Assembly (NCBI GenBank): GCA_024278935.1
Contig: JAJRSF010000014.1
Span: forward strand, 1 to 64,000
Reading direction: 5' to 3'
From: Candidatus Zixiibacteriota bacterium
GTDB taxonomy: Bacteria; Zixibacteria; MSB-5A5; GN15; FEB-12
DNA length: 64,000 nucleotides
Translations under genes and position numbers: made by a program
Part shown: piece after piece, positions 13,475-63,809 of the stretch
How the letters are laid out: each line of letters opens with the position of its first letter
Position numbering within the stretch: position 1 is the first letter of the stretch
Notes under the pieces: generated by a model
Database searches by the model: none
Seen by the model: the letters and a program-made list of their open reading frames with translations, nothing else
Told to the model about the DNA's origin: nothing

Positions 13475-13521
13475 AAATATATTTAGGAACAGGCATGCCG
13501 GTTCCTTATGAAATTTCTAAA

Positions 13522-15987: not shown

Positions 15988-16833
15988 ATGAAATCTGTTT
16001 TAAAAATTGCGGTATTTTTTACGATTGTATTAGTCACATCACAATCAAAAATTTATGCACAGTCCGGAGTTTCTTTAGACCGTGTAGCTCAGTTACGGGA
16101 TGGTGCTGTTGCTGTTGATGTGCCAGCCTCATTTTTTATTCGTTTTAACAATGATTACCCTGGTGATGTGCATGGTTTCTCACTTGCGTTCAGATTTTAT
16201 CTCTCAAATAATGGAGAACTCGCAAATGGTGCTTTTACACCAATGACTCACAATATTATTAATACTCAAGATTGGACCTCATTTTTTACTCTACTTCCAG
16301 TTGTAACACAAAATTATTCTACAAATGGATTCGCTTCCGACACTGTTGGTATTAGAGGTGTTGAAAGTTTTCTTTTGTCATCGCCATCAGGTTTTTCTTC
16401 GCTTGCCGGAGGTGGGTTACCTATAGGGTTTAATGATGTCGTTCTTAATTTAGAAACAACACCATTATCAGCTCACATTGGAGATTCTCTTTGTATCGAC
16501 TCATCTTATTATGCACCTGCAAATGCATGGCACTGGCATCTTGAAGGAAATATCAGATTCGAAGATCTGCCTTGGTCAGGACCACATTGTTTTGAAATTG
16601 TAGAAAAGTGTTGTGTCGGTATCCGAGGTAATGTCGATTTGTCGTCAGGAGAAGAAGTCGATATCTCTGATTTAGTGATGCTTGTTGATTTTATTTTTAC
16701 CGGTGGCTTTGAACCATATTGTCCAACAGAATCTGATCTTACAGTAGATGGCGAGGTTGATATTTCTGATTTAGTTGAATTGGTTAGTTTTATTTTTACA
16801 AACGGACCACCACCACTTCCTTACCCTAAGTAA
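15988..16833 (+). CDS. Secreted protein with C-terminal dockerin-like double repeat
   Basis: Signal peptide MKSVLKIAVFFTIVLVTSQSKIYA; CCVGIRGNVDLSSGEEVDISDLVMLVDFIFTGG...DGEVDISDLVELVSFIFTNGPPPLP. Confidence 0.85.
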   Translation: MKSVLKIAVFFTIVLVTSQSKIYAQSGVSLDRVAQLRDGAVAVDVPASFFIRFNNDYPGDVHGFSLAFRFYLSNNGELANGAFTPMTHNIINTQDWTSFFTLLPVVTQNYSTNGFASDTVGIRGVESFLLSSPSGFSSLAGGGLPIGFNDVVLNLETTPLSAHIGDSLCIDSSYYAPANAWHWHLEGNIRFEDLPWSGPHCFEIVEKCCVGIRGNVDLSSGEEVDISDLVMLVDFIFTGGFEPYCPTESDLTVDGEVDISDLVELVSFIFTNGPPPLPYPK

Positions 16834-16904
16834 CAAGTGATAAAAATTTGTTGAATTGATAAAAAATAAATAGTTCATAAACCGTCTCAGTTTTGGAGGG
16901 CGTT

Positions 16905-17699
16905 ATGCGTCAAATGAGTAAGTTACTTTTAACAATAATTATTTTTAATATCTGTTTAATGCCTACACAAAGTTTTGGACAAGTAAGTATTTCTGTTGTA
17001 AATGTTGAAGGGGTCTCGGGAGACAAAATCAGACCGGACGTTCCAATTGTCTTTTCTTTACGATGGACGAATAATACGGATACATTGATTACTTTCTCAA
17101 ATGGTTTTCGAATGTACCTAAAAAATAATATTGAACTACCAGCAGGTCAATTTCAACCTATGACTTTAGATACATTACCAGTTGGATTCTCAAATATGTT
17201 TAAATTTTTTCAATTTCGTTACTTTAGTGTTGATGGTTTAGGGAGTGATTCAGTAGCAATGTTTGGTGACAGATTATTTTCACACCCTGGGTTACCAATA
17301 GGATTTGATGAAGTAGCGAATTTAATAACTACTTCAGTAACATCAGATTTTGCTGGAGATACTCTTTGTCTTGATTCAGTTAGAATAGATAATTTATTTT
17401 GGGTCTGGTATTTTAATACAAGTCGTAAAGATAACCCCACATGGTCGGGGCCGCATTGTTATGAAATCCTACCAAGTTGTTGTGTTGGTATTCGTGGCAA
17501 TGTTGACTTGTCCTCTGATGAAGGAGTTGATATCTCAGATCTTGTTATGTTAGTAGGTTTTGTGTTTACAAATGGAACCGAACCGTATTGTTCTATAGAA
17601 TCCGATGTGACTGCTGATGGTGAGGTTGATATTTCCGATTTAGTTTCGTTAGTCGATTTTATCTTCACCAACGGTCCACCACCACCTGCTTGCCCGTAA
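16905..17699 (+). CDS. Secreted protein with C-terminal dockerin-like double repeat (tandem paralog of previous)
   Basis: CCVGIRGNVDLSSDEGVDISDLVMLVGFVFTNG...VDISDLVSLVDFIFTNGPPPP; same architecture as 15988..16833. Confidence 0.85.
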   Translation: MRQMSKLLLTIIIFNICLMPTQSFGQVSISVVNVEGVSGDKIRPDVPIVFSLRWTNNTDTLITFSNGFRMYLKNNIELPAGQFQPMTLDTLPVGFSNMFKFFQFRYFSVDGLGSDSVAMFGDRLFSHPGLPIGFDEVANLITTSVTSDFAGDTLCLDSVRIDNLFWVWYFNTSRKDNPTWSGPHCYEILPSCCVGIRGNVDLSSDEGVDISDLVMLVGFVFTNGTEPYCSIESDVTADGEVDISDLVSLVDFIFTNGPPPPACP

Positions 17700-29723: not shown

Positions 29724-29732
29724 AAATTGTTT

Positions 29733-29789
29733 GTAGGTCGTGGTTCCGTTGAATTGAAATCGAGAGATTTCAATATCGAGAAACCCGAC
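29733..29789 (+). repeat. GTAG-footed REP-like element, copy A
   Basis: GTAGGTCGTGGTTCCGTTGAATTGAAATCGAGAGATTTCAATATCGAGAAACCCGAC; homologous to 47683..47739. Confidence 0.85.
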
Positions 29790-29853: not shown

Positions 29854-29949
29854 TTTATTTTGCAGCTAAGTCACTCTGAGCTTGTCGAAGGGACAACACA
29901 GCAGACTTTACGAACGCCCATAGGGAGTGTGTCGATACCATCTTTAAAA

Positions 29950-29978
29950 TTGACAAGCAAGTAGTCATTTACTATAAT
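29950..29978 (+). promoter_or_regulatory. Consensus sigma70 promoter attached to a dispersed repeat
   Basis: TTGACA (29950-29955), 17 bp, TATAAT (29973-29978). Confidence 0.8.
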
Positions 29979-29999
29979 AAATTATAACTATAAAATTCA

Positions 30000-30860
30000 T
30001 TGGAGAGTTGGTTGAAAAAAACACTCATCGTAATAGCATCTATTATATTGATAATTTTAATTATTTTTATTGCATTTGTTCTTAATGGTATGAATTCTGT
30101 TTATTTTGATGGAAAGGATTTTCAATATAAAGGGAAGTATAAAGAAGCAATAGAGTGTTTTACTGAAGCAATTGAAGAAGATGGAATATTTAAAACTAAT
30201 GCGTACCTTCATCGCGGGCAAGTATATGCTAAAATTAAAGAATTTGAGAAATCCTTGGCTGACTTTGACTCAGCATTTTTTGAATCTCCACAAAATTATT
30301 CTGCTTTAAATAATAAAAGCGATACATATTTACTTATGGATGAGTTTGAAAATGCTCTTATGCTAATCAATAGATCTATCAATGTAGAGAGTACTGATGA
30401 AGCACATATAATAAAAGGAAAAATTTTATGGAAGATGGGGGATTTAGATAATGCTGAGAAAGAATATGAAATAGCTATACAATTTGATAGTAGTTATTAT
30501 TTCCCTTACTTTAAAAGAGCATTTTTCTATTCACAAAATCATGAATTTGAAAAATCTATAGCCGACTTGACTATTTCTATTGAGTTAGATTCTGAATATT
30601 CTAGATCGTATAATAATAGAGGTTGGTCATATCTTTCGTTAGGAGATTATGATAAAGCTCTTATAGATATTCAAAAATCAATCTCTCTTGATTCGACTAA
30701 TGCTTTTACTTATCATAGTCTAGCTACTTTATATTTTAAAATAAATGATAATGATAACGAACTTGATGCACTAAATAATTATCTTATATACAAAACAGGT
30801 GAAGAACCACATCCACTTGATTCAATAACATCACGAATTGAGGAGTTAAAAAATTATTGA
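30000..30860 (+). CDS. TPR repeat protein with N-terminal membrane anchor
   Basis: Tandem 34-aa repeats, e.g. SRSYNNRGWSYLSLGDYDKALIDIQKSISLDSTNAFTYHSLATLYFK. Confidence 0.88.
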   Translation: MESWLKKTLIVIASIILIILIIFIAFVLNGMNSVYFDGKDFQYKGKYKEAIECFTEAIEEDGIFKTNAYLHRGQVYAKIKEFEKSLADFDSAFFESPQNYSALNNKSDTYLLMDEFENALMLINRSINVESTDEAHIIKGKILWKMGDLDNAEKEYEIAIQFDSSYYFPYFKRAFFYSQNHEFEKSIADLTISIELDSEYSRSYNNRGWSYLSLGDYDKALIDIQKSISLDSTNAFTYHSLATLYFKINDNDNELDALNNYLIYKTGEEPHPLDSITSRIEELKNY

Positions 30861-30906
30861 TTATTACAACTACTCAGATACTGTCTTTCCAAAGCCCCGC
30901 CTAATT

Positions 30907-31851
30907 TCACTCCGTCGAACAGCTCGGAGCAACTCCACCCGTAAAAATAAAATCAACAAAGCCGACCAGATCAGAAATATCAACAGCACAGTCACAAGTA
31001 AAATCCGCCTCGTCATTTGTAAGAGTCGCACCATCGGTAAAAATAAAATCAACCAATGCTACCAAATCATAAATATCGTAATCTTCTGTTGCCAGAGAAT
31101 ACCCACATGTCGGCAGCAGCGTAAAAGACCCTTGATTAATCTGTACATAGTTCATATCAAGTATCGCAGTAGTATCAAGGACAATATACATTGAATCACA
31201 CAGCGAAGGATCTATAGGCACACCAATAACCCTAGGTACTCTTTGATATTCTAGGCAGGTCTCACCCACCCATGTTATACACTCATAACAAGTTGTATCA
31301 GTATAGATATTATAAGTCAAGCCAATCGACTCACCAGAAGGTTTAATAAGTGAAAAATGCCAACTAGGTTCAGTACTCATATCTATGCGAGCAAGAGAAT
31401 CTTCAGGAGGAAAAACAAATGTGTCTACTACTTCAAGGTATAACCGAATAAGAAGTTCATCGTTTTGAGGTGGAATGAGAAAATTGTAATCTAATGTATA
31501 ACCGACCGATGTAATCAATATATCTCGTCCATTCCCACCTAAAGAAGTCGTATGGACACCCCATTCCGGCATTATATAACTAGATGTATCATAAAGATAT
31601 TTTAGAGGAACATCACCTTCTTGAAATTTCACTATTTCAAACCCACCAAGTTGAAGCCAGAGTTGGAAACCTATAAGTGTATCAACAAGATTTGATATTG
31701 TAATATCTAATGGAACTAACTTTTCACCGGTTTGACCAGATACGTCGCCAACTGTTAATGTGATATTTTGAGAAAAAATGAGTGATGGTACAAAGAGGAT
31801 AACAAAGAGAGCAGTAATAAAGATATTTTTTGAACGGTTGTTAAAGGACAT
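30907..31851 (-). CDS. Secreted cohesin-like/dockerin-like repeat protein
   Basis: NITLTVGDVSGQTGEKLVPLDITISNLVDTLIGFQLWL N-terminal half; C-terminal YDIYDLVALVDFIFTDG...VDISDLVGFVDFIFTGG. Confidence 0.75.
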   Translation of the reverse strand: MSFNNRSKNIFITALFVILFVPSLIFSQNITLTVGDVSGQTGEKLVPLDITISNLVDTLIGFQLWLQLGGFEIVKFQEGDVPLKYLYDTSSYIMPEWGVHTTSLGGNGRDILITSVGYTLDYNFLIPPQNDELLIRLYLEVVDTFVFPPEDSLARIDMSTEPSWHFSLIKPSGESIGLTYNIYTDTTCYECITWVGETCLEYQRVPRVIGVPIDPSLCDSMYIVLDTTAILDMNYVQINQGSFTLLPTCGYSLATEDYDIYDLVALVDFIFTDGATLTNDEADFTCDCAVDISDLVGFVDFIFTGGVAPSCSTE

Positions 31852-32122
31852 AAAATTCTCCGCATTGATTTGAGTTCTATAATTAATCCTTTAACTATTG
31901 AGTATAAAATTATCCCTTAATTTTTAAACGCATATTATTTTAGAATAGTATGTCTATATTATATCAATTTTGCGTAAATCTGTCAACAGAATTTTGAAAA
32001 TCCGACTCTCAGGTCAATAATCGACCATGATATCGACTCTTAAAATATTCCGAAACATATTTAGACAAACCCTCGTATCTACAACAACTAACAAAAAAAC
32101 AAGTTTGTACTAAGGAGTTAAG

Positions 32123-33226
32123 TTGTATGATAAAAAAATATTTCTTACTGTTTTGTTTCTAGCAGTCTGTTCCGCAGTCCTCTACTTTGCCATTGATGGC
32201 TCTGCTGAAGAAAACAAAGCATTCAAAACTTTTGCTGTTGAAAAAGGTTCGATTATTGATAAAGCCTTGGCTGTAGGCAAAATAGACCCACGCAAAGAAA
32301 TTTCTGTCAAATCAAAAATGCCCGGTATTGTAAAAAAGATTTATGCTGATATCGGCGATATTGTCAAAGTCGGCGACCCGTTATTTGAAATCGCTCCCGA
32401 CCCAACCCCGATCGAATTAACACAAGCCAAGCGTGAAGTCGAGATAAGACAAGTCACTTTCGACAATGCCGAAAAAGAACTTATCCGTGTCAAAACTTTA
32501 AAAGAACAAAAATTCATCGCACCGCAAGACTTTGATTCCAAAGAAGCATTCTGCGAAGAATCACGTCTGCGTCTTGAACTCGCCAAAGAAAAACTTTCAC
32601 TTATTCAATCAGGCAAAACAAACTCAAACGACAATTCTGTTTCAAACATAATATTCTCAACCGTCGCAGGTACCATTTTATCTCGCATGGTTGAAGAGGG
32701 CGACCCGGTTGTCCCGCTTACATCTTATCAGGCAGGTACTGCTCTTATGACAATCGCCAAAATGGATGACCTTATTTTTAAAGGGAACGTCGACGAAATC
32801 GATGTTGGGAAAATTCATGTCGGTATGGTAACTGAAATTGAAATCGGTGCCTTATCATCCGAAGAACGGATCGAAGGTAAGCTCACAAAAATTTCTCCAA
32901 AAGCACATAAAGAAGATGGTTCCACCATGTTTGCAGTTGAAATAGAAATTGACCAAACAGGTGCCACTCAACTTCGGGCAGGTTACTCCGCTAACGCCGA
33001 TGTTATCATACGCAAAAAAGTAGACATCTTGCTTATACCGGAACGACTGCTTATAGCAAGAGATTCATCATACTTTGTTGAAGTGTCCGACACTATGAAT
33101 GTTGTCACCGAGCATGAAGTAACAACAGGTCTCTCCGATGGAATCAGAATTGAGATTACCGATGGAGTCGAAGAGGGTGATCTTATTGTCGAACGTCCAC
33201 CAAAAGAAATTTCAATTGAAGACTAA
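32123..33226 (+). CDS. HlyD/MacA-type periplasmic adaptor (membrane fusion protein)
   Basis: IDPRKEISVKSKMPGIVKKIYADIGDIVKVGDPLFEI biotinyl-lipoyl-like domain; hairpin region; upstream of ABC permeases. Confidence 0.88.
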   Translation: MYDKKIFLTVLFLAVCSAVLYFAIDGSAEENKAFKTFAVEKGSIIDKALAVGKIDPRKEISVKSKMPGIVKKIYADIGDIVKVGDPLFEIAPDPTPIELTQAKREVEIRQVTFDNAEKELIRVKTLKEQKFIAPQDFDSKEAFCEESRLRLELAKEKLSLIQSGKTNSNDNSVSNIIFSTVAGTILSRMVEEGDPVVPLTSYQAGTALMTIAKMDDLIFKGNVDEIDVGKIHVGMVTEIEIGALSSEERIEGKLTKISPKAHKEDGSTMFAVEIEIDQTGATQLRAGYSANADVIIRKKVDILLIPERLLIARDSSYFVEVSDTMNVVTEHEVTTGLSDGIRIEITDGVEEGDLIVERPPKEISIED

Positions 33227-33243
33227 AGAAAGAACCAACTAGC

Positions 33244-34482
33244 ATGTTTCCAATTGTAACTATAAAACAATTTCTCAATGACCTTCGCCGTCAGAAACTT
33301 CGTTCTGCGATGACTATGTTCGGTATATTCTGGGGTACCTGTTCTATCGTACTCCTCTTTGCCTTTGGAAAAGGTATAACCGAAGCACAACTGAAATCAC
33401 AGCTCGGCATGGGTGATAATATTGCAATCTTCTGGCCGGGGATAACATCGAAAAAATTCGCAGGACTTCCAAAGGGAAGGCGGATCCGTCCTACGCATGA
33501 TGATATTTCTCTTGTCAAACAGAAATCTCAATTACTAAATAGAATCTCTCCAGAGTTTTCAAGATGGAACGTTAATCTTAAATATAAAAACGAATCAACA
33601 GCAAGACAGATAATTGGAATCTGGCCGGAGTTTGGCGAAATGAGAAATATTATTCCTGAATATGGTTCCCGGTTTATAAATCAAAGAGATATCGACGAAC
33701 AACGTCGTGTAATTTTTATCGGGAACCTTCTGAAAATTGATCTCTTCGGTGAAGAGAAAGATGCTGTCGGTGAAAGAATTTTAGTTAACGGAATGCCGTT
33801 TACCGTTATCGGTGTAATGAAAGAAAAAAAACAGGACAGTTCCTACGGAAGTCGTGATAGTCGTAAAGGGATTATCCCATCATCAACTTTTCAAACAATG
33901 TATTCAAATAGACATATGAATAATTTTGTCGCACAGGCAAAAAAGACAACAACGATGGAAATTGCTCGAAAAGAAATTTATGAAATCTTAGGTACAATAT
34001 ATAAGTTTGACCCATCCGACCATGAAGCACTTTCAGTCTGGGACACTTCCGAAAGTTTTGCATTCTTAAAAACATTCTTCACAGCTTTCTCAGGGTTCCT
34101 TGTTGCTATTGGAGTCGCTACTTTGATAACAGGTGCAATCGGCGTCTCAAATATTATGTATGTTGTACTAGAAGAACGTACCAAAGAGATCGGTATCAAG
34201 ATGGCTCTTGGTGCAAGAAAAAGTTATATTATGTTCCAGTTTGTTTTTGAAACTATTCTGATAACTTTTGTCGGTGGTGTGTTAGGATTTCTATTTGCCT
34301 GGGGCATCATTGCTGTTTTCCCAATGTTGCAATTAGAAGAATTTATCGGAACCCCTCGTATAAATATTTTTGGGGGAATTTTAATCACCTGCATTCTTGG
34401 AGTCATCTCGCTTATCGCAGGGTACTTCCCAGCCAGAAGAGCTGCCAACTTACAACCTGTACAAGCACTAAAATTGTTCTAA
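33244..34482 (+). CDS. MacB/FtsX-like ABC transporter permease 1
   Basis: MacB periplasmic core-like N-terminal region; GVSNIMYVVLEERTKEIGIKMALGARKSYI. Confidence 0.92.
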   Translation: MFPIVTIKQFLNDLRRQKLRSAMTMFGIFWGTCSIVLLFAFGKGITEAQLKSQLGMGDNIAIFWPGITSKKFAGLPKGRRIRPTHDDISLVKQKSQLLNRISPEFSRWNVNLKYKNESTARQIIGIWPEFGEMRNIIPEYGSRFINQRDIDEQRRVIFIGNLLKIDLFGEEKDAVGERILVNGMPFTVIGVMKEKKQDSSYGSRDSRKGIIPSSTFQTMYSNRHMNNFVAQAKKTTTMEIARKEIYEILGTIYKFDPSDHEALSVWDTSESFAFLKTFFTAFSGFLVAIGVATLITGAIGVSNIMYVVLEERTKEIGIKMALGARKSYIMFQFVFETILITFVGGVLGFLFAWGIIAVFPMLQLEEFIGTPRINIFGGILITCILGVISLIAGYFPARRAANLQPVQALKLF

Positions 34483-34491
34483 GGAAGAGAT

Positions 34492-35739
34492 ATGAATATT
34501 TCTGTTATATATAATGTTTTCGTGAGAGATTTTCGTAAACAAAAAACAAGAATCGCACTCACACTTTTTGCCCTTGGATGGGGAACATTTTCCATTATGC
34601 TTTTATTAGGATTTGGAAAAGGACTCCAAGACCAAATGGGTTTGCAAAAAATGGGGATGGGAAGTAATATCATGGTTGTATGGGGCGGACAAACTTCGAT
34701 ACCTTTTAAAGGGATGGGTAAAGGTCGAAGAATTTCGCTCTATCCTGAAAGTATAGAATACCTCAAAAAAAACGTTCCAGAAATTTTAGATGTCGGCGGT
34801 GAGTATGACCGTTGGGGAATCCGTGTCACATACAACGATGTTGTTTTATCTGAACATGTCAATGGCGTAACTCCGAACTATGAAAAGCTCAGACATTTTA
34901 TTCCACAAAACGGTGGACGAATGATAAACGATTTAGATCTGAAACTCAAAAGGAAAGTCGCATTTCTTGGATGGGAAGTCAGTGAAAGAATTTTCCAAGA
35001 TGAAGATCCTATAGGTAAACAAATTATGATGAACTCTATGCCGTACACTGTAGTTGGTGTCATGCAAGAGAAGATGGTAATGGGCAACTATAGCGGATCT
35101 GATGATAGCAGAATCATAATTCCGCTTACTACTTATAAAGCGACCTATGGTGATCCTTATTTAGATAATTTAGTTTGTCAACTCTCAAAAGGAGCTGATT
35201 CCAAAGCTATTGAAAAGAAAATTTTTGCTGCTTTTGCGGATAAATATAAATTTGATCCAACCGACGACAGAGCTTTGTCAATATGGGATACTATTGCCGG
35301 AGCAAAAGAATTTAACAACATCATGTTTGGTATAAATATTTTCTTCGGATTCATCGGCGGTCTCACATTATTAATCGCAGGTGTTGGTGTCGCAAACATC
35401 ATGTATGTATCAATCAAAAAACGTACCAGAGAAATCGGTATAAAAATGGCACTCGGTGCCAGACGTTCATATATCATGATGCAATTTTTACTGGAGTCAT
35501 TGTTGATAACATTCATCGGCGGCTTTGGAGGAATGTCATTTAGTTACATTCTCACCGAAACATTTAGACGGATACCTATTGAAAGCGATGTGCTCGATAT
35601 GATGGGACGTCCAACCATATCCCTAGATATTGGAATAATCGTAATTACAATTTTAGGTATCATGGGAGTTATGTCGGGGATCTTCCCGGCAATGAAAGCA
35701 TCATCGGTTTCACCGGTAGAATCACTTAGGTACGAATAG
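34492..35739 (+). CDS. MacB/FtsX-like ABC transporter permease 2
   Basis: GVANIMYVSIKKRTREIGIKMALGARRSYI; paralogous to permease 1. Confidence 0.92.
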   Translation: MNISVIYNVFVRDFRKQKTRIALTLFALGWGTFSIMLLLGFGKGLQDQMGLQKMGMGSNIMVVWGGQTSIPFKGMGKGRRISLYPESIEYLKKNVPEILDVGGEYDRWGIRVTYNDVVLSEHVNGVTPNYEKLRHFIPQNGGRMINDLDLKLKRKVAFLGWEVSERIFQDEDPIGKQIMMNSMPYTVVGVMQEKMVMGNYSGSDDSRIIIPLTTYKATYGDPYLDNLVCQLSKGADSKAIEKKIFAAFADKYKFDPTDDRALSIWDTIAGAKEFNNIMFGINIFFGFIGGLTLLIAGVGVANIMYVSIKKRTREIGIKMALGARRSYIMMQFLLESLLITFIGGFGGMSFSYILTETFRRIPIESDVLDMMGRPTISLDIGIIVITILGIMGVMSGIFPAMKASSVSPVESLRYE

Positions 35740-35758
35740 AGAGGAGTGCAAATAAATT

Positions 35759-36436
35759 ATGATACGAATGACAAATATTGAAAAAGAATATCTCACCGGA
35801 GCGGTGAAATTCAAAGCCCTCAAAGGGATCGACTTACATATCACCAAGGGTGAGTATGTTGCAATCGTGGGACCATCCGGTTCAGGCAAATCTACCATGA
35901 TGAATATTATCGGATGTCTGGATATTCAAACAGCAGGCGGTTTTCTCCTTGATGGGCAAGACATAGCAACTATGACCTCTAACCAGCTTGCAGATATTAG
36001 AAACCAAAAAATCGGATTTGTATTCCAGGCTTTTAATTTGCTTCCCTATGCAACCGCTTATGAAAATGTTGAAGTACCTCTCTTGTTTGCAAAAACTAAT
36101 AGCAAATATAGAAAAGAACGCATTATAGAACTCTTACACAAAGTTGGGCTTGGCGATAAAGTTAATAACAAACCAACCGAGATGTCCGGTGGTGAAATGC
36201 AACGAGTCGCTATCGCACGAGCCTTAGCCAATGACCCCGATATTATTCTAGCCGATGAACCAACAGGGAACCTTGACTCGGCATCAGGTGCTGCAATCGT
36301 AAATATTTTTAATGAACTGCATACTATGGGCAAAACAGTTGTAATGATTACTCATGACATGTCGCTTGCTGATAAAACCGATCGAATCATACGCCTCAAA
36401 GATGGCATGCTCGAAAAAATAACAGCCGTCGCATAA
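35759..36436 (+). CDS. ABC transporter ATP-binding protein (MacB/LolD type)
   Basis: GPSGSGKST Walker [16 protein letters not shown] signature, [12 protein letters not shown] Walker B. Confidence 0.96.
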
Positions 36437-36465
36437 AATTTACACCTTTCATGCACTATGCAAAT

Positions 36466-36500
36466 AAGCTGGTCAGATTTATTTCTCTCCAGCTTTTTTG
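36466..36500 (+). terminator. Rho-independent terminator of ABC operon
   Basis: AAGCTGG...CCAGCTT then a T run. Confidence 0.7.
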
Positions 36501-36910
36501 TTTGCAATGAGTTATCCACAATCTTTTATTAAGTTATTTTGCTGTAAAAATAAGAGGGTATTACAGATACAGCAAATTGGGTTCGTTTTCTCAAATTTAC
36601 GTTTTTTAAATTAAGTAACTTCTTCAAAATGGGTTCGTTTCGCATATAAAGGGAACCTAATATATACGTTTTTCTGCACTTTCACGACATAAGTAAAACA
36701 GGCATAGCCTGTTACGACGAAATGGCTTTGCTTAAAAAAATGGCTTAAGCCATTTTTGCTAATATTTCTTGTAGTGATTTTGTGCATCTCAAATTCTCTT
36801 TCAATATAAAGTTGTTCATAGTAAGAGAAGCGTTTTGAAACAGGGGAGAGGGTGTAGGGAATTTGTAATGTGAAGAAAGGGGAGATGAAGTTGTTCGCAT
36901 ATTAAGAAAT

Positions 36911-36932
36911 CCCACCATAAATGGTGGGCTAC
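36911..36932 (-). repeat. GTAG-footed REP-like hairpin
   Basis: Reverse strand GTAGCCCACCATTTATGGTGGG. Confidence 0.8.
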
Positions 36933-36951
36933 CAAGCTGTTTGTTTCAGTT

Positions 36952-37000
36952 GTAGGTCGGCGTTCCTCACGAACACCGATAGGTGGATGCAGAACCCGAC
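36952..37000 (+). repeat. GTAG-footed REP-like element
   Basis: GTAGGTCGGCGTTCCTCACGAACACC...AGAACCCGAC. Confidence 0.75.
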
Positions 37001-37020
37001 AGATGATTGAATTCACACAA

Positions 37021-37097
37021 CAGTCATTGCGAACGACCGCAGGGAGCGTGGCAATCTCATCTTTAAAATTGACAACCAAGAAGTATATTACTATATA
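37021..37097 (+). repeat. Dispersed GTCATTGCGAACGACC...GGCAATCTCATCTTTAAAATTGACA repeat with promoter
   Basis: Homologous to 29903..29978 and 38289..38341; TTGACA 37069-37074, 17 bp, TATATA 37092-37097. Confidence 0.75.
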
Positions 37098-37141
37098 TAA
37101 AATATGTTACTTTTTGCTATTAATCTTTCAGGAGGGACAAT

Positions 37142-38188
37142 ATGTCCAAGTTTATCTTAATACTAACTGTTATGTTTATCCTTTTCATCTCATGTGATAA
37201 CACAAATAAAATTGTCGACCCACTACCGGTAGAAAATTTAGCATACCAATTTTCTGACTATATACACTTTGATACCACCAATGCTTATTTAGTTGGCGAA
37301 GCCTATAGTAATTTCCCCAATCAAAATACAGAAATGTATCTGTATTGGGAAGGTGTAGTCGGGGAACAATTCATTGATGTCGATAGTAATGGAGTCTATG
37401 ATCGGGGAATTGATCTTTTTATAAGAGATACAACCGCTGAGAACATGGATTTAAACCATGATGGAATATACAATGGTCCAGACCAACCTTGGCAATATAA
37501 TGTGCCTTTTGATGATATAAATGGGAATGGTCTTTATGACGGAACTCTTTTAAATTATCCTCGACCTTTATATTCTGTTGGAAAACCATTTTATGATTAT
37601 AATAATAATGGGAAATGGGATAATAATTTACCTTATAAGTTTCATATTTATGGTTGTAATTCTTTGACAAATGATTCATCAAAAAACTATTCTTTTGTCT
37701 TTGTAGACTCAACTTTTAAATATGTATCAGATTCAAATCTGACATATTGGTTGAATAGTGTAAATGGTTTTTCTTATAGATCCTTAAAATTATCTTTTGA
37801 AGTACTTGATAATAATCATTTAACTTTTAAGTTTCCTGGGAGTGATTATTATGAATACTTAGATTATCTGGTAGACTCTAGTGTAATTACTACTGATACT
37901 TCTGAGTTTTTTGGGTCAATTAGTTATGGACCTCGATTTTCAATAACGAAAGAAACTATCTTAGGTGAAGAATTAGAATATAATAGTATTTTGTATTCAG
38001 ACCTCCTATTAATTAGATTGTCATATTTTAGTACTGTGGAAAACAGAGATTTATCTTTAGAGTTCTATTTTTCAAAAGAACTAGGGTTCATAGCATTCAT
38101 TAACGATTTGGGGGATAGTTCTTATGGGAAGAAGTCTTATTATTTTATAGAGAAATTTCCAACAATACCTTATCCGCTTACCAAATAA
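37142..38188 (+). CDS. Hypothetical lipoprotein with Asp/Asn-rich calcium-binding-like loops
   Basis: Lipobox ILFISCD; DVDSNGVYDRGID, DLNHDGIYNG, DDINGNGLYDG, DYNNNGKWD loops. Confidence 0.7.
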   Translation: MSKFILILTVMFILFISCDNTNKIVDPLPVENLAYQFSDYIHFDTTNAYLVGEAYSNFPNQNTEMYLYWEGVVGEQFIDVDSNGVYDRGIDLFIRDTTAENMDLNHDGIYNGPDQPWQYNVPFDDINGNGLYDGTLLNYPRPLYSVGKPFYDYNNNGKWDNNLPYKFHIYGCNSLTNDSSKNYSFVFVDSTFKYVSDSNLTYWLNSVNGFSYRSLKLSFEVLDNNHLTFKFPGSDYYEYLDYLVDSSVITTDTSEFFGSISYGPRFSITKETILGEELEYNSILYSDLLLIRLSYFSTVENRDLSLEFYFSKELGFIAFINDLGDSSYGKKSYYFIEKFPTIPYPLTK

Positions 38189-38220
38189 AAAAAACGGAGT
38201 CGTCAATGACTCCGTCTTTA
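38189..38220 (+). terminator. Rho-independent-type hairpin, shares sequence with 39097..39127
   Basis: AAAAAACGGAGTCGTCAATGACTCCGTCTTT. Confidence 0.7.
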
Positions 38221-38405
38221 GTAGTAAGCAAGAACCTCGCCAAGACGTACTGCGAGCCTTTAGTGGTTCTGCCAATTTTCGATTCAGCAGTCATTTCGAA
38301 CGACCAGTGGGAGTGTGGCAATCTCATCTTTAAAATTGACAATCTAGGAAGTTATGTCGTTTATATAATATGACCATTTAAATAAAAACTGGAGAGATAC
38401 CACAA

Positions 38406-39077
38406 ATGGATTCTAAAACCATAAGTTTATTTTTACTCATATTTCTTTTTTGCAGTAACTTTTCTTATGCTGGAAATTCTGATACAACCTATGCACATTT
38501 AAACCAACGGTATCGTTCTTTGTGGCAAGAGAGAAACAGTACTTTTTCATCTACCGGAATTCATATTCTTGCTAAAGAATATAATATAGCGGATAGAATA
38601 GGTTATAAAATAAATGGGATGGCACCGTTATATAACCATACATGGTATAGAGAAGGTGATGTTACCCGTTACAGTTTAAGAGAAGTTGTTAATTTTATGT
38701 TAGTAACTTTTGCTATGAGTGAAGGGGAAAACACGGGTGGTGAACATCCGAAATTTTATCCTAAAACAGCATTGACTTATTTAATGTTTCTTCCAAATTC
38801 AGAGATTCGTTACCAATTAAATAAAACTACCTTTCTAAGTCTTGGAACAGAAACGAATTATTTTTTCTTTCGAATCAAAGGTAAGGATAGAGGAATGATA
38901 ACTTCGATAAAATTTGAAATACCAATAGAAATTCATCGTTTAGATGAAACCGATAGAGTTTTGCTAGCACCCTTTATAAAAACCAATACATTTATCAATT
39001 ATGAGGGTGACAATAAATGGTATGGTTGGTCATTCGGTCTAAAATTAATTTCAACGACAGATTCAATATTTGATTAG
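38406..39077 (+). CDS. Hypothetical secreted/outer-membrane protein
   Basis: Signal peptide MDSKTISLFLLIFLFCSNFSYA, beta-rich. Confidence 0.6.
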   Translation: MDSKTISLFLLIFLFCSNFSYAGNSDTTYAHLNQRYRSLWQERNSTFSSTGIHILAKEYNIADRIGYKINGMAPLYNHTWYREGDVTRYSLREVVNFMLVTFAMSEGENTGGEHPKFYPKTALTYLMFLPNSEIRYQLNKTTFLSLGTETNYFFFRIKGKDRGMITSIKFEIPIEIHRLDETDRVLLAPFIKTNTFINYEGDNKWYGWSFGLKLISTTDSIFD

Positions 39078-39163
39078 TACGAAAATAATTATGCCATAAA
39101 AAAACGGAGTCGTCAATGACTCCGCTTTCATGTAAAGCATTGTGTAAATTTAAAAAGTATCTA

Positions 39164-44104: not shown

Positions 44105-47100
44105 ATGTTAAGAAGAACTATCAGTTTTATCTGTCTTATGATTATTATAAGTGGGTTTTCAGAAAAAGCAGTATCGTTGGATAAAAACTCTCAAGATGAC
44201 AACTATAAATTTAATTCATCGACCTATTCCACAAGTACAGAGTCAATAGCAATCCCCGAAATTCAATGGCCTCTAAGTATCGGTGTTCAGCGAACAGGCA
44301 AAATCAATGCATCTTTCAACGACCAAGGTCAGTTTGGAACTGGGTTTAGTGATTTTAACTCTACGCCAAGTATATCTTTTGAAACTCCTTCGTACTCAGG
44401 TTTAGAATATCTTTTTGGCGGTCTTATCTGGGTTGGTGCTATTGTTGGAAATGATACATTAGTATCTACCGGAGCCGATGGATGGCAAGGAGGTTATGAA
44501 GAATTTGGAGCTGATAATACCTTTGATCCTAATCTCGAAAAATTACAGTTTCCATCAGATTATTCAATGAGAGCTGAATTTACAGACACTGTTATTGATG
44601 GTATCCAGCTGGATTTCTCAAGAGGGACTCCGCATATCCCTCTCAACGTAAAAATTGCTAATAGGTCTCATATCTGGCGTGTTGATACTTTGGACAATGC
44701 TATTTTCTACGACCTTCTTATAACCAACATTGGTGACCAAACTCTTGAACAAGCGTATATCGGCTTCTATTTTGATTGTGATGTTGGTCATACATCTATG
44801 TCTGGATATGAGAGAGCCAGCGATGATCTTAGCGGCAGTTTAAGAGATAACGGAATCGCTTATATAATTGATAACGATGGTGACCCATCTGCTGGTTCTT
44901 TTAATTCAACTAGTCCTACAAAAGCTTTTGCTTTCAAACTGCTCGCATCATCTTTTCCAGTAATAGATACAAACTATAACTGGTGGGTTAGCGGAACAAG
45001 TGATGATACTGATTTTGGACCAAGGTTACGAGGTATCCCCGAAGATCCTTTCCGAGATTTTGGTACTGGTTTTATTGGAACTCCAATGGGGGATGCAAAT
45101 AAATATTATATAATGAGTCATAAAGAATGGGACTATGACCAATATGACATCGCAACAATAGGTTCATCTGACCCTGACTGGATGGAGCCAAATCCATCAG
45201 GAGTTACTTCTTTGGCAGTAGGAGTAGATTCAAGATTTCTCTATTCCTTCGGACCATTTGATTTAGCACCGGGACAATCAGAACGAATTATCTTTTCAAC
45301 ATTTACTGCAGATTCAATTCATCAAGACCCAACTAATTTAGACAATTTACCACACAATCCTACCGCCTATAAAGCTAATTTAAATCTTGATAATATTGCA
45401 TCTATCGGTTCTGCTATAATTCAAGCAGTAGACTCTATATTAAATCCATTAATACAACCTGCATGGTTAGAAATTTTTGACTATAACAAAATCAGCTTTG
45501 ACCCATATGTCTTTGATGATGTCACCGGCTACAATGTCTATGCTACTTCGGTAGATGCTTCGGCTTTTACATTTCCGGGTGCAATCCCACCATGGTATAA
45601 ACCGACATCGCCATTTTATGTCGGAAGTTCAATTGATTCTGTATCTGTCGATACGCCCGATGGCTTAACCGCTGTGAATGTCAGCTATACATCTGTCTTT
45701 GGCGAAAGTGAATTATCGCAATCAGCCTTTATAAATATGCCAGCCGCTGTTACACCAACTATCAGAGAGTACTCTACAACAACTACAGAGTCGTCAGTTT
45801 TACTTTCGTGGTATATCCCTGACACTGTCTTGCAACCTGACCATTTTAATATATATAAATTCGCTAGCTATGATGACTTCAAACAAGTGTATAGCAAACC
45901 GTATTATAATGAAGGTTCTCCAAATAATTTTACTACAGATAGTATCGAAGTAGATGGTACCTGGTGGTTCTACCAATCAACAATAGATACACCGTATACT
46001 GTTGTTGATGGAAATGAAAGAGAATTTATCGAGAACAATTTTGATGAGGAGTTCATCTATATTATTGTGTCAGTCGATCAGTTTGGATTTGAATCTGGCT
46101 ATGCAACGACAACTACATACCTCATGCCCGAGAGAACCAAAGATTTATTGATCATTATAAATTCCGAAGTTGCCACACTTTCTACATCTGCTAATCTGAT
46201 AATTGATTATTACAATGCACTCTTACAAGGGTCAGGAATTAGCTATGAATTCTTCTCAGTCTTAGATAGCTCCAGTGCTGCAGCATGCCCGTCGGTTTCG
46301 TACTGTCCAACATGGCAATTCATGTCTGCATATGATTATGTTTTAATAGATGAAACCGAGTATGCCGACCAATATTGGAAATATGAAATACTTTCGTTTA
46401 TAACAAACGGGGGGAAGCTTATTAACTTCGGAGCTCTATCGGAATTTAACTATAACAATCATAGTACAACTCCGGGATGGTACGATAATAATTTTTTGAA
46501 CAAAACAATGTTTGGAGTTGATTCAATTTTTAACATGGGGCATCTCTATAATTATCCAAACCCAATCGAAGAAAACAGATTTGGTTTTAATGTTGCCAGA
46601 AGCGAAGGCGGTCTTTTTGCTGATTTACAATGCGATACTGTTCGTTTCCCGCTAGATCCTAAATGGCAGATTATCGTAAACGATAACCCAACCAACGAAC
46701 CTCTGCATGTGACAACATTTATGCCATCGGAAAATTCTGTCGTCACTCATCGTTATAATTCTTTATACCCTGCGACATCGTACATGGAAAATATGGCGGT
46801 CGGACTCAAACATGTATTCAGCGATGGGTTTGACTCAACCGAAGTGTATACCTATGGATTCCATTTATATTATATGCATCTTAATCAATCAAGAGATCTG
46901 CTTGGAACTATCTTAGGAGTAGTTATCGACACAACTTTCACCTGTTGTATACCACCAATACGGGGCAATGTCGACAGCGACTTATCTGAACAAATTGATA
47001 TCTCAGACTTAGTATATTTGGTAGACTTTATCTTTACTAATGGACCTCAATCTGTCTGCAATCAAGAAGCAAACATTGATGGTGATATCGGAGAGCATAT

Positions 47101-47173
47101 AGACATCTCAGATTTAGTTTACTTAGTAGACTTTATTTTCACAGGAGGCCCCCCCCCACCAGGTTGCTTCTAA
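44105..47173 (+). CDS. Large secreted protein with C-terminal dockerin-like double repeat
   Basis: SD GGAGGAG then MLRRTISFICLMIIISGFSEKA; C-terminal PIRGNVDSDLSEQIDISDLVYLVDFIFTNG...HIDISDLVYLVDFIFTGGPPPPGCF. Confidence 0.88.
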   Translation: MLRRTISFICLMIIISGFSEKAVSLDKNSQDDNYKFNSSTYSTSTESIAIPEIQWPLSIGVQRTGKINASFNDQGQFGTGFSDFNSTPSISFETPSYSGLEYLFGGLIWVGAIVGNDTLVSTGADGWQGGYEEFGADNTFDPNLEKLQFPSDYSMRAEFTDTVIDGIQLDFSRGTPHIPLNVKIANRSHIWRVDTLDNAIFYDLLITNIGDQTLEQAYIGFYFDCDVGHTSMSGYERASDDLSGSLRDNGIAYIIDNDGDPSAGSFNSTSPTKAFAFKLLASSFPVIDTNYNWWVSGTSDDTDFGPRLRGIPEDPFRDFGTGFIGTPMGDANKYYIMSHKEWDYDQYDIATIGSSDPDWMEPNPSGVTSLAVGVDSRFLYSFGPFDLAPGQSERIIFSTFTADSIHQDPTNLDNLPHNPTAYKANLNLDNIASIGSAIIQAVDSILNPLIQPAWLEIFDYNKISFDPYVFDDVTGYNVYATSVDASAFTFPGAIPPWYKPTSPFYVGSSIDSVSVDTPDGLTAVNVSYTSVFGESELSQSAFINMPAAVTPTIREYSTTTTESSVLLSWYIPDTVLQPDHFNIYKFASYDDFKQVYSKPYYNEGSPNNFTTDSIEVDGTWWFYQSTIDTPYTVVDGNEREFIENNFDEEFIYIIVSVDQFGFESGYATTTTYLMPERTKDLLIIINSEVATLSTSANLIIDYYNALLQGSGISYEFFSVLDSSSAAACPSVSYCPTWQFMSAYDYVLIDETEYADQYWKYEILSFITNGGKLINFGALSEFNYNNHSTTPGWYDNNFLNKTMFGVDSIFNMGHLYNYPNPIEENRFGFNVARSEGGLFADLQCDTVRFPLDPKWQIIVNDNPTNEPLHVTTFMPSENSVVTHRYNSLYPATSYMENMAVGLKHVFSDGFDSTEVYTYGFHLYYMHLNQSRDLLGTILGVVIDTTFTCCIPPIRGNVDSDLSEQIDISDLVYLVDFIFTNGPQSVCNQEANIDGDIGEHIDISDLVYLVDFIFTGGPPPPGCF

Positions 47174-47648: not shown

Positions 47649-47682
47649 AAAATCATATTATTATGAAATGTTCAGATATTTT

Positions 47683-47914
47683 GTAGGTCGTGGTTCCGTT
47701 GATTTGAAATCGTCAGCTTTCAAAATCGAGAAACCCGACTCAATGTCATGTATAAAAGTAGCCGTAGGTCGAACCTCCTGTAGTTTCGACTGTAGTAGAA
47801 GTAGGTCAGGTCTTTCCGAGACCTGATTTTTTTAATAGGGAACTGGTTTGCCTGTTCCGCAACCCGGATAAAATTTTATGCTATAAAAAAAGGCGGTTCG
47901 CAAACCGCCCCTAC
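47683..47914. repeat. Cluster of GTAG-footed REP-like hairpins
   Basis: 47683-47739, 47764-47790, 47801-47826 (plus T7), 47836-47860 and 47892-47914 (reverse strand). Confidence 0.8.
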
Positions 47915-47985
47915 ATGTTAGAAGTACAGAACTTCGGACTTCTAAATTTTTGTGAGCATACTTCGACAAGCTCAGTATGACTTAA

Positions 47986-50958
47986 CTACCCGGCGGCACC
48001 GTGGCATTTTTTATATTTTTTACCAGAGCCGCATGGACAAGGATCGTTCCGTCCTACTTTCGGTTGGTCACGTTTGATTGTCTGGGCTTGGTTGCCTGCC
48101 TGCGATGCTTGAGCCATTGGGTTCTCACCCTGACCTTGTACCTGTGCAGCTTGTCCGGCGGCGTAACCCATGTTGGATGCATCTTTGTGCGATGCGTTCA
48201 TGGCAATGTCAGCCTTACTTTTTTCAGGAACGTTAACTTGCAGTTTATAAACCAGATTAACAATTTCTTTATCAACATTGTGAATCAGTTCTTCAAAAAT
48301 ACCGAACGCTTCTTTTTTATAAATGTCAATCGGTTTACCCATGGCACCATGGTAGGCGCGTAGCCCGATTCCCGTGCGAAGTTCTTCGATCTCTGCTAAG
48401 TGGTCACGCCAATGTTGGTCGATAGTTGAGAGAACTGCGTAGCGTTCAAGATGTCGCATCACTTCATCACCATAGGCAGTTTCTTTTTGCGTATAAATAT
48501 GCGTCACTGCTTTTAAGACATTTTCTTTGAGCGATTCATGAGTAAGTTTTGCAATATCTTCTTCTTTGAATTGCAAGTTAAGCAAATATATTTTTGTAAG
48601 CTCTTCAGTCAGTCCTTTTAAATTCCAATCTTCAGGATGATCTTTTTCAGGGCAATGTACTTCAAGCATCCCGTCTAAGACTTCCTCAATCAGCTCAACA
48701 ACTTCATCTCTGATAGACTCTCTTTCAAGAGCAGCGAGCCGACGTTCATAAATCCATTTACGCTGGACGTTCATGACATCATCGTATTCCAAAGTATGTT
48801 TTCGAATGGCATAGTTCTGTGCTTCAATTTTTGTCTGCGCTCGCTCAATCGCCGATGTTACCATCTTGTGTGCGATAACTTCGCCATCTTCCAGCCCGAG
48901 CTTATCCATGATAGAACCGAGTTTGTCGCCACCAAAAAGTCGCATTAGATCATCTTCCAATGAAAGGAAAAAGAGCGATGACCCCGGGTCACCTTGACGT
49001 CCGGCACGACCACGAAGCTGTCTGTCAATACGGCGAGACTCATGCCGTTCTGTTCCGACAATATGCAGTCCACCTAAATCAATAACACCATCACCAAGTC
49101 GAATATCAGTACCACGACCGGCCATGTTGGTTGCGATAGTTACACCGCCAAGCCGTCCTGCGTTAGCAACAATTTCAGCTTCCGATTGATGCTGTTTTGC
49201 ATTCAGTACATTGTGTTTGATACCGCCACGTTTTAAAAGACGAGAAAGTGTTTCGGATACATCGACTGTAACAGTACCAACTAAAACAGGCTGACCTTTT
49301 TCATTTCGTTCTCGCACTTCATTGACAATCGCATTGTATTTTTCACGGCGGGTACGGAAAATCTGATCTTCCTGATCGTCACGGATGATAGTTTGATTGG
49401 CAGGGATTACCATGACATCCATTTTGTAAATATCAAAAAATTCTTGTGCTTCAGTTTCCGCAGTACCGGTCATCCCGGCAAGTTTGTCATACATACGATA
49501 GAAATTTTGTAATGTTATCGATGCCAGCGTTTGTGTCTCTGCTTCAATGCGGACATTTTCTTTTGCTTCGATAGATTGATGTAGTCCGTCGGAGTATCTT
49601 CGTCCCGGCAACACACGCCCGGTGAACTCATCAACAATCATTACCTTGCCATCTTGTAACACATATTCGGAATCTTTTTCATAGAGAGAGTAGGCACGTA
49701 AGAGTTGATTGATCGCATGCACTTTTTCAGACTTGTTGGAGTGCATCGCATAGACTTCTTCAGATTTTTTCTGACGATCTTCAGCGGAGAGTGATTCATC
49801 TCCTTCAATTTCAGAAAGCATTGTAGAAATATCAGGGATGAGAAAAAGTGATTGTTCATCTGGTGTTAGTTGCTCAGTTCCTAAATCGGTCAAAGCAATA
49901 GAGTGTTCTCTTTCGTCGATGAAGTAGTAGAGACGGTCGTCAATTTCGTTTAGTTTTTTGTCTCGGATATAATCAGCTTCAACATCGGAAAGCAATTTTT
50001 TCATTCCGGTTTCTTTGAGAACCTTGAGTAGTTTACTATTTTTTGGAGCACCGCGGTTGGCAGCGAGTAGAAGAGTTCCTGCTTCAAAAAGTTCATCATG
50101 ATCGGCACCGCCTTCGGTGTAAATAATTTTTTCAGCTGTAGCAATCATGTCATTAATCAGGCGTGCTTGTTTGCGTACAAGATTTTCAACTGTTGATTTA
50201 ATCTGTCGATAACGGTCATGTGATGAATTTTCAACTGTTCCAGAAATAATCAAAGGCGTACGAGCTTCATCAATAAGAATCGAATCGACCTCATCAATAA
50301 TCGCATAATGATAATTACGATGCACTCTGTCTTCGGCTGTCTGTGCCATATTATCACGAAGATAATCAAAACCAAATTCGTTGGCAGTTCCAAAGGTGAC
50401 ATCGCATTCATATTTTTCTTTACGCTGGGCATTGGTCATTTGGTTTTGGATAACTCCAACAGTCAGACCAAGGTACTCATAGATACGTCCCATCCACTCA
50501 CTATCACGACGAGCAAGGTAGTCGTTCACGGTAACAATATGAACCCCTTTGCCGGTAAGAGCATTAAGATATGTTGGGAGAGTTGCGACGAGAGTTTTTC
50601 CCTCACCGGTTGCCATTTCAGAAATTTTTCCTTGATGCAGGGCAATACCACCGATGAGCTGTACATCAAAATGCACCATATTCCATTCAATATCAATATC
50701 GCAAACCGACCATGTTTGACCACAATGACGGCGCGAGGCATCTTTGACAACTGCAAAAGCTTCCGGTAGGATATCTTCGACAGTTGCGCCATCGGCTAAA
50801 CGCTTTTTGAATTCTTCAGTTTTGGCTATAAGTTCATCATCGGAGAGAGAAGCAAGTTTTTGATAATGTTCGTTTATTTCGTCTACTAAAGGCTGAATTT
50901 TTTTGACATCTCGTTCATCTTTAGTTCCGAACATCTTTTTGATTATATTTCCAAGCAT
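47986..50958 (-). CDS. secA: Preprotein translocase ATPase SecA
   Basis: [17 protein letters not shown] start; [25 protein letters not shown]-terminal [18 protein letters not shown] zinc motif. Confidence 0.98.
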
Positions 50959-61391: not shown

Positions 61392-62416
61392 CCGAAACTA
61401 CGGTTGAAAAATCAGAACCTACCCAACAAGAATCTGCCACAAAAACACAGGTACAAGGCTTCCCTCCCCCAGCTCCGCAGCAACCTACGCAACCTGAAAA
61501 ACCTGCTGAACAGGTAACTCCTGCACCTGTAAGTGAACCTGAAAAACCTATCGAAACAATAGAACCGACAAAGTCGGCTGAACAGGCAATGCCTGTCGAA
61601 GAAGCAAAACCTGCTGAACAGGCAAAACCTGCTGAACAGGCAAAACCTGCTGAACAGGCAAAACCTATCGAGACAATAGAACCGACAAAGCCGGCAGAAC
61701 AGACAAAACCTGCTGAACCGGTAACTCCTGCACCTTTAAGTGAACCTGAAAAACATATCGAAACAATAGAACCGACAAAGTCGGCTGAACAGACAATGCC
61801 TGCTGAACAGGCAAAACCTGACGAAGAACAGAAACCGACAATGCCAACACCTGCACCTCTGCCGAAGCCTCCACCATTACCTCAAGTGAATAGAGAACAT
61901 CAGCATACAAGTTCTGAGAACCATAAGAATCATGAACAGGTAATGCCTGTCGAAGAAGCAAAACCTGTCGAAGAAGTAAATCAGGCGAAGCCTGTAAAAC
62001 CGACAATGCCAACACCTCCGCCTCTACTTAAGCCTCCACCATTACCTCAAGTGAATAGAGAACATCAGCATACAAGTTCTGACAATCATAAGAATCATGC
62101 ACAGGCAAAACCTGTCGAACCTCGAAAAACTCCACCGCAAATGCCAACACCTCCGCCTATACTTCCACCAAACCCGGAAGTTATGCGACGGAACCGTGAA
62201 GAGCAGGAGCGTCGTTTGAAAGCGTTGCAGGAACAGAAACAGCAACAGCAAAACGGCGATGATACTTCTACAAATGATTCAACTGAGAGTAGTAATTCTT
62301 CTGACGGAGAAAATCGTTCGGAGCAGAACAACCAATCTTCTCATGATGGAAATCAACAGCAGAACAATCAACAGCAGAATTTCCAATCAAGAAGACATAA
62401 CCGAAACAAACGATAA
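61374..62416 (+). CDS. Low-complexity P/E/K/Q-rich tail, probable C-terminal extension of PyrF
   Basis: Frame open from before the A7 run 61367-61373 to 62416 with no start or SD in 61392-61588; track ORF begins at an internal repeat ATG (61589). Confidence 0.65.
61600..62105 (+). repeat. Nested coding tandem repeats
   Basis: 18-bp GCAAAACCTGCTGAACAG units, and a ~105-bp unit (MPTPxPLxKPPPLPQVNREHQHTSSxNHKNH) present twice, near 61840 and 62005. Confidence 0.85.
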
Positions 62417-63754: not shown

Positions 63755-63809
63755 GTAGGGAACTGGCCTGCCTGTTCCTAAGTGAGGTTCAGGCAGGCCT
63801 GAACCCTAC
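63755..63809. repeat. Two REP-like hairpins, one on each strand
   Basis: GTAGGGAACTGGCCTGCCTGTTCC and reverse-strand GTAGGGTTCAGGCCTGCCTGAACC. Confidence 0.8.

What the first reader, a model, noticed from the sequence alone, without database searches (positions are those of the whole stretch)
29870..38369. Dispersed repeat that carries a sigma70 promoter half-site ahead of three orphan genes
Three copies (about 29903-29978, 37021-37097, 38289-38369) share a GTCATT(G/T)CGAACGACC..GGGAG(T/C)GTGGCAATCTC core followed by CATCTTTAAAATTGACAA, outside the hairpin core. TTGACA is followed at 17 bp by TATAAT in copy A and TATATA in copy B; copy C is less clear. Each lies directly upstream of an unrelated accessory gene (TPR protein 30000, lipoprotein 37142, secreted protein 38406). 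This looks like a mobile or recombinogenic promoter cassette.
Basis: partly seen in the sequence, partly recalled or inferred. Interest (0 to 1): 0.72.

Follow-up and report, generated by a model that had tools for sequence, protein, structure and literature searches.

The report
Palindromic repeats fused to gene promoters
In one genus of uncultured deep-sea bacteria a short scattered palindromic repeat is sometimes joined, at a nearly fixed distance, to what looks like a working gene switch (promoter), and the same unit sits in front of quite different, mostly unknown genes, so it may be a natural way of giving new genes a ready-made promoter.

Summary
All three copies exist, and CATCTTTAAAATTGACAA occurs exactly three times in the 3.4-Mb genome, all here. 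Copy A's -35/-10 match is perfect, B's good; C has TTTATA at 18 nt.

The core is a REP-like palindrome family of this Zixiibacteriota genus (82 copies examined in four genomes). Most (67/82) lack TTGACA, so the generic repeat is no promoter carrier. But 15/82 have TTGACA 7-10 nt past the element's 3' end: the commonest hexamer there, never mirrored at the 5' side, ~1e-15 against local background. Of these, 12 have a same-strand ORF start 34-73 nt later (13/67 without TTGACA; p=2e-5). Similarity continues into the -10 region; the link is confined to this genus.

At conserved slots the cassette stays while the gene changes: G000 C64 and G003 C3 align through the promoter to the start codon (z=21.5), then encode unrelated proteins (z=1.1). 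Copy C versus G002 is similar.

Best reading: a genus-specific, promoter-bearing REP variant that works like Neisseria Correia elements, serving lineage-specific genes. Transcription, mobility and route of spread are unshown; no transposase is linked and no clean empty site was found.

The parts
29904..29938 (+). Copy A, degraded REP-like palindrome core
   Evidence: weak fold z -0.45
29939..29956 (+). Copy A tail plus -35 box, CATCTTTAAAATTGACAA (TTGACA 29950-29955)
   Evidence: exact match
29973..29978 (+). Copy A -10 box TATAAT, 17 nt from TTGACA
   Evidence: 12/12 sigma70 match
30012..30860 (+). TPR-repeat protein gene behind copy A (listed ORF starts 30000; TTG at 30012 more likely)
   Evidence: absent from the same slot in G002 and G003
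37023..37060 (+). Copy B palindrome GTCATTGCGAACGACCGCAGGGAGCGTGGCAATCTCAT
37058..37075 (+). Copy B tail plus -35 box (TTGACA 37069-37074)
37092..37097 (+). Copy B -10 box TATATA, 17 nt from TTGACA
   Evidence: sequence
37142..38188 (+). Lipoprotein gene behind copy B (no Pfam family)
   Evidence: orthologue with the same promoter, but a broken frame, in G002
38195..38214 (.). Palindromic terminator-like CGGAGTCGTCAATGACTCCG after the copy B gene; a second copy at 39105-39124 is conserved in G003 (and as a variant in G002) beside the backbone gene
38290..38327 (+). Copy C palindrome GTCATTTCGAACGACCAGTGGGAGTGTGGCAATCTCAT
38325..38342 (+). Copy C tail plus -35 box (TTGACA 38336-38341)
38360..38369 (+). 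Copy C -10 region TTTATATAAT (TTTATA at 18 nt, TATAAT at 22 nt)
   Evidence: motif TTGACA-N18-TTTWTA shared with other cassettes
38406..39077 (+). Secreted protein gene behind copy C (no Pfam family); distant paralogue of the gene behind the C64 cassette
   Evidence: replaced by a Sel1-repeat gene behind a similar promoter in G002

Best explanation
The feature is a promoter-bearing variant of a REP-like palindromic repeat family of this Zixiibacteriota genus. The repeat (clamp GTCATTGCGA / GTGGCAATCTCAT, a freely varying and mostly self-complementary centre, a T-rich tail) is joined, 11-14 nt past GGCAATC, to a sigma70-type -35 box followed by a -10 element. Inferred mechanism: the T/A tail next to the -35 box acts like an UP element; the promoter drives the single lineage-specific gene behind it; the palindrome offers short homology through which cassettes are copied, homogenised within a genome, or rejoined to other genes. 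Shown by sequence: the junction, its statistical reality, its link to gene starts, its restriction to the genus, and conservation of the cassette with a different gene at two slots. Inferred: transcription, UP-element action, and the route of spread (homologous recombination between short repeats, or mobilisation in trans).
For: TTGACA is the commonest hexamer 5-12 nt past the element (15/82), at offsets 7-10 only, and never mirrored on the 5' side; binomial P 5e-16, or 6e-12 if reduced to 12 loci. Same-strand ORF start 25-110 nt on in 12/15 (34-73 nt) versus 0/15 in mirror and 13/67 of copies without TTGACA. The 34 nt past TTGACA resemble each other across 19 cassettes (0.395 versus 0.313, sd 0.006), even between different loci of one genome (G002-C and G002-C6, z 9.4). 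About 35 ordinary TTGACA promoters in 464 kb of the same genome show no such tail outside the window copies. Genus-restricted. Cassette kept, gene different: C64 versus G003 C3 upstream z 21.5, coding z 1.1; C versus G002-C upstream z 10.2, coding z 1.0.
Against: No expression data. Most copies of the repeat lack the promoter. Spacing between repeat and -35 varies by 3 nt and the tails differ. Similar promoters also follow two other palindrome families, so repeat and promoter may be separate things brought together. The seven exact 18-nt copies all lie in one syntenic block, so part of the spread is local. The gene sample is small (14 genes) and ORF calls are simple.
Confidence: 0.55

Rival explanations
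1. Insertion or survival preference: ordinary REP-like elements insert directly upstream of pre-existing promoters, for instance at T-rich DNA before the -35 box. They neither supply nor move the promoter.
For: Variable tail and spacing before TTGACA; different palindrome centres at orthologous promoters; two other palindrome families in the same position before similar promoters.
Against: Identical CATCTTTAAAATTGACA in seven copies with unrelated genes; similarity runs on into the -10 region between different loci; the about 35 ordinary promoters of the genome are not preceded by the repeat.
Confidence: 0.22
2. Local duplication only: A, B and C (and their counterparts in G002 and G003) descend from one promoter region duplicated inside the RNR-to-propeller block; the look-alikes elsewhere are coincidental.
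For: All exact 18-nt copies lie in this block in three species; B and C of G002 share about 100 nt including sequence upstream of the palindrome.
Against: Further cassettes on other contigs: G000 C63 and C64; G002 C6, C9, C18 and C22; G003 C3, C13, C18, C84 and C92; G001 C123, far above chance.
Confidence: 0.12
3. The palindrome is a regulatory operator: a transcription factor binds the conserved clamp directly upstream of the -35 box and controls a regulon of secreted and accessory proteins.
For: Fixed orientation and position next to the -35 box; several targets are secreted or membrane-type proteins.
Against: The centre takes 63 distinct sequences of many lengths while keeping self-pairing, so the clamp halves have no fixed distance; most copies lack the promoter; the palindrome is degraded in copy A beside an intact promoter.
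Confidence: 0.06
4. Chance: TTGACA next to a repeat in AT-rich intergenic DNA.
For: Copy C's -10 spacing is not canonical; TTGACA is common in the intergenic DNA.
Against: Binomial P below 1e-11 even after collapsing likely orthologues; strict one-sidedness.
Confidence: 0.01

Closest known systems
CGTC-tagged REP superfamily, including Neisseria dRS3 and Rickettsia RPE-4/RPE-6 (Di Nocera 2013, PMC3733652)
   Same: Short intergenic palindromes with an unpaired GTC-type tag (TGTC is a listed variant), a stem that begins with A-T pairs, a short unpaired tail, heterogeneous stems and loops, and no transposase gene flanked by the repeat.
   Different: Tag here is mostly AGTC or TGTC; the centre is longer and far more variable (10-37 nt, 63 types in 82 copies); the tail is CTCATCTTTT rather than CCA; and one subset is joined to a promoter. 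That paper did not analyse promoters, calling such analysis speculative without experiments.
Correia repeat enclosed elements of Neisseria (review PMC10969869; PMC3898611)
   Same: Short dispersed non-autonomous element that places a sigma70-like promoter in front of neighbouring genes.
   Different: [quoted passage not shown] here a ~35-55 bp single palindrome with a one-sided promoter and no target duplication seen.
Neisserial intergenic mosaic elements with dRS3 (PMC3898611)
   Same: Palindromic repeats beside variable surface-protein genes, proposed to promote gene exchange.
   Different: Repeat arrays of 200-2700 bp without a phased promoter; here usually single units with a promoter.
Putative mobile promoters / promoter propagation (term found in PMC8049555 and PMC9208149)
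   Same: Near-identical promoter regions in front of non-homologous genes in one genome.
   Different: Those reports are general surveys or models; here the unit includes a defined palindrome and can be followed at orthologous slots.
RAYT-linked GTAG REPs / REPINs
   Same: Dispersed intergenic palindromes; Y1 transposases are present in all four genomes.
   Different: No GTAG tag, and none of ten Y1 loci is flanked by this element.

Membership tests
CGTC-tagged REP | Unpaired CGTC (or TGTC/CCTC) tag at one end | tested here: inconclusive
   GTC is conserved, but the preceding base is mostly A or T
CGTC-tagged REP | Stem that starts with complementary AT residues | tested here: met
   ATTGC...GCAAT in nearly all copies
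CGTC-tagged REP | Stem of 8-9 bp with a loop of 4-5 nt | tested here: not met
   Clamp of about 5 bp plus a variable centre of 10-37 nt
CGTC-tagged REP | Not flanking tyrosine transposase genes | tested here: met
   0 of 10 Y1_Tnp loci carry the element
GTAG REP / REPIN | GTAG tag and a flanking RAYT gene | tested here: not met
   No GTAG at the ends; no flanking RAYT
Correia element / MITE | Terminal inverted repeats of about 26 bp and TA target-site duplication | tested here: not met
   Single palindrome; no duplicated target seen beside the copies
Correia element / MITE | Carries a promoter that is active in the host | not testable with these tools
   Promoter sequence present in a subset; activity needs 5'-end mapping
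Integron gene cassette | A recombination site on both sides of each gene | tested here: not met
   Repeat on the 3' side of only 2 of 14 genes
Known Rfam RNA element | Match at gathering score | tested here: not met
   0 matches in the window

The most novel reading that the evidence does not exclude
The repeat-promoter cassette is an anchor for gene exchange: recombination in the palindrome or promoter replaces the gene right behind the start codon, so that fast-changing secreted, lipoprotein, Sel1/TPR and nuclease genes are swapped behind a constant promoter, without an integrase.
Probability: 0.2. Interest if true: 0.75.

Novelty: new variant of a known kind. Interest (0 to 1): 0.5.

Why it matters
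How newly acquired or newly born genes obtain a promoter is an open question. Here palindrome, promoter and gene can be told apart across sister species, with homology that runs to the start codon and stops there, so promoter capture can be tested directly. It also adds a REP type with one-sided, phased promoters in an uncultured phylum, where almost nothing is known about transcription.

Tried and rejected
Rfam: no match in the window at gathering thresholds. RAYT-driven REP: Y1 transposases are present but not flanked by the element. Two-sided, transposon- or integron-like unit: 3' repeats at only 2 of 14 genes. Intrinsic terminator: the palindromes of A, B and C are not called as terminators, and the T run is separated from the stem by CTCAT. 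General promoter context of the genome: rejected, ordinary TTGACA promoters lack the tail. Clean empty sites: comparison of the flanks of all fetched element loci gave none. Shared terminator behind B and C as part of a unit: the second copy belongs to the conserved backbone gene. Listing all tails by an open-ended pattern mostly returned duplicates and another genus. Literature: the literal repeat sequence is found only in primers and the like; no paper on Zixibacteria promoters was found.

Full report
SETTING. The window is contig C11 of a 3.4-Mb, 68-contig genome, called G000 here.

OBSERVATION. Copies A, B and C lie where stated. ATCTTTAAAATTGACAA is exact only at these three places in the whole genome. 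The -35/-10 pairs are TTGACA-17-TATAAT (A, 12/12), TTGACA-17-TATATA (B), and TTGACA-18-TTTATA or -22-TATAAT (C). Copy A's palindrome is degraded although its tail is perfect.

THE REPEAT FAMILY. The core belongs to a REP-like family with ends CATTGCGA and GGCAATC(TCATCTTTT) and a variable centre: 14 copies with exact ends in G000; with ends ATTGCG and GGCAATCTCAT there are 7, 22 and 29 in sister species G001, G002 and G003. I collected 82 copies from these four genomes. Sixty-three distinct centres fold better than shuffles (mean z -2.5), for example GGCGATTTATCGCC, GTCCGCCTTGGCGGAC and GTTCGCCTTAGCGAAC, so pairing is kept while the sequence changes. The GAACGACC-NNN-GGGAG centre of B and C is a weakly paired subtype. 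Most copies end TCATCTTTT and have no promoter.

THE PROMOTER FORM. Fifteen of 82 copies have TTGACA starting 7-10 nt past TCAT; no other hexamer is as common there, and no mirrored case exists on the 5' side. Against the local background rate the binomial probability is 5e-16, or 6e-12 if reduced to 12 loci. Counting also copies with degraded ends (A, C64, and the G003 copies at slot A and on contig C18), 19 cassettes were aligned. The 34 nt past TTGACA resemble each other beyond composition (mean identity 0.395 against 0.313, sd 0.006). One group has TTGACA-17-TATAAT or TATATA with a leader (A, B, G002-B). Another has TTGACA-N18-TTTWTA (or TATTTA) and an ATG about 4-5 nt later, which would give leaderless messages (C64, G003 C3, G003 C84, G002 C6); C and G002-C share the motif, but their genes start further down. 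Of the 15, 12 have a same-strand ORF start 34-73 nt past TTGACA and none in mirror; 13 of 67 copies without TTGACA do. In 464 kb of G000 about 35 TTGACA promoters show that sigma70-type promoters are normal in this organism; outside the window copies none has the repeat at the cassette position. The joined form is limited to this genus: among 61 genomes searched, matches outside it are about one per two genomes and lack the CATCTTT tail; the longer pattern was found in this genus only among 99.

COMPARATIVE ANATOMY. The backbone ribonucleotide reductase - HlyD - MacB - MacB - ABC - beta-propeller protein - DUF4402 is shared by G000, G002 and G003. In the reductase-HlyD slot G000 has copy A with a TPR gene; G003 has the cassette but neither that gene nor a clear -10 box; G002 has no cassette. 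In the ABC-propeller slot G000 has B-lipoprotein and C-secreted protein; G002 has B-lipoprotein (frame broken) and C-Sel1 protein; G003 has one cassette followed by an Mrr-like nuclease gene. At the C64 slot the cassette and about 150 nt before it are homologous to G003 C3 (z 21.5 and 13.2), but the coding sequences are unrelated (z 1.1); G002 has a third gene there without a cassette. C versus G002-C: promoter z 10.2, coding z 1.0. B versus G002-B are orthologous throughout (z 8.5 and 11.8). The centre of the palindrome differs between species at these sites (GAACGACC type in G000, GAGGAACGAAGTGAC type in G002 and G003), and the two G002 copies share about 100 nt including sequence upstream of the palindrome. 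This suggests homogenisation within a genome.

WHAT IT IS NOT. No transposase is linked, no Rfam family is matched, no regular repeat follows the genes, and no clean empty site was found. Similar promoters also follow two other palindrome families, so promoter and palindrome can be decoupled.

INTERPRETATION. I favour a promoter-bearing variant of a REP-like family that serves lineage-specific genes (0.55). Sequence shows the junction, its non-randomness, its link to gene starts and its persistence while genes change. Transcription, UP-element action and the route of spread are inferred. The main rival is preferential insertion of REPs just upstream of promoters (0.22). The closest known things are CGTC-tagged REPs (PMC3733652) for the palindrome, Correia elements (PMC10969869) for the function, and neisserial mosaic elements (PMC3898611) for exchange of neighbouring genes; full membership is met for none.

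Noticed in passing
82 element copies in G000-G003, e.g. L027, L036, L047, L153: The palindromes keep a conserved clamp while the centre takes 63 distinct, mostly self-complementary sequences of 10-37 nt, including nested hairpins; orthologous sites can carry different centres. The process that creates this is unexplained.
   Followed up: partly
L151:1694 (+), L137:157 (- strand coordinate), L035:1202 (+): Similar TTGACA promoters (TTGACA-N18-TTTATA type in L151 and L035) stand directly behind other palindrome families: dRS3-like GGAATCCAG repeats and the TGAGC..TCGAAG repeat.
   Followed up: partly
L105:9240, L179:3079, L071, L107:9408: A promoter type TTGACA-N18-TTTWTA (or TATTTA) with ATG 4-5 nt later suggests leaderless transcripts in this genus.
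   Followed up: partly
L100:6437-7185: The G002 orthologue of the lipoprotein gene is broken (frame change and an internal stop) while its cassette promoter is intact.
   Followed up: no
window 29730-29789 and 47680-47739; 13483-13508, 47836-47858 and 63756-63781; 29864-29890 and 47961-47987: Other dispersed palindromic repeat families (GTAGGTCG..GAAACCCGAC, GGAACAGGC..GCCTGTTCC, CTCTGAGCTTGTCGAAG) crowd the same intergenic regions.
   Followed up: no
window 16573-17695, 30907-31080, 46987-47149: Repeated dockerin-like segments (DISDLVxLVDFIFTxG) at the ends of several secreted proteins; one such gene lies in different slots of the same syntenic block in G000 and G003.
   Followed up: no
window 61498-62164: Long imperfect 18-nt tandem array inside an ORF (AEQAKP-type peptide repeats).
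   Followed up: no
window 63916 and L095 (G002 C23:35460): Another nearly identical promoter region, TTTAAAATTTGACAATCTGCTATCTTTTTGGGTAATT, before a gene start in both genomes; in G002 it follows a copy of the same REP family.
   Followed up: no
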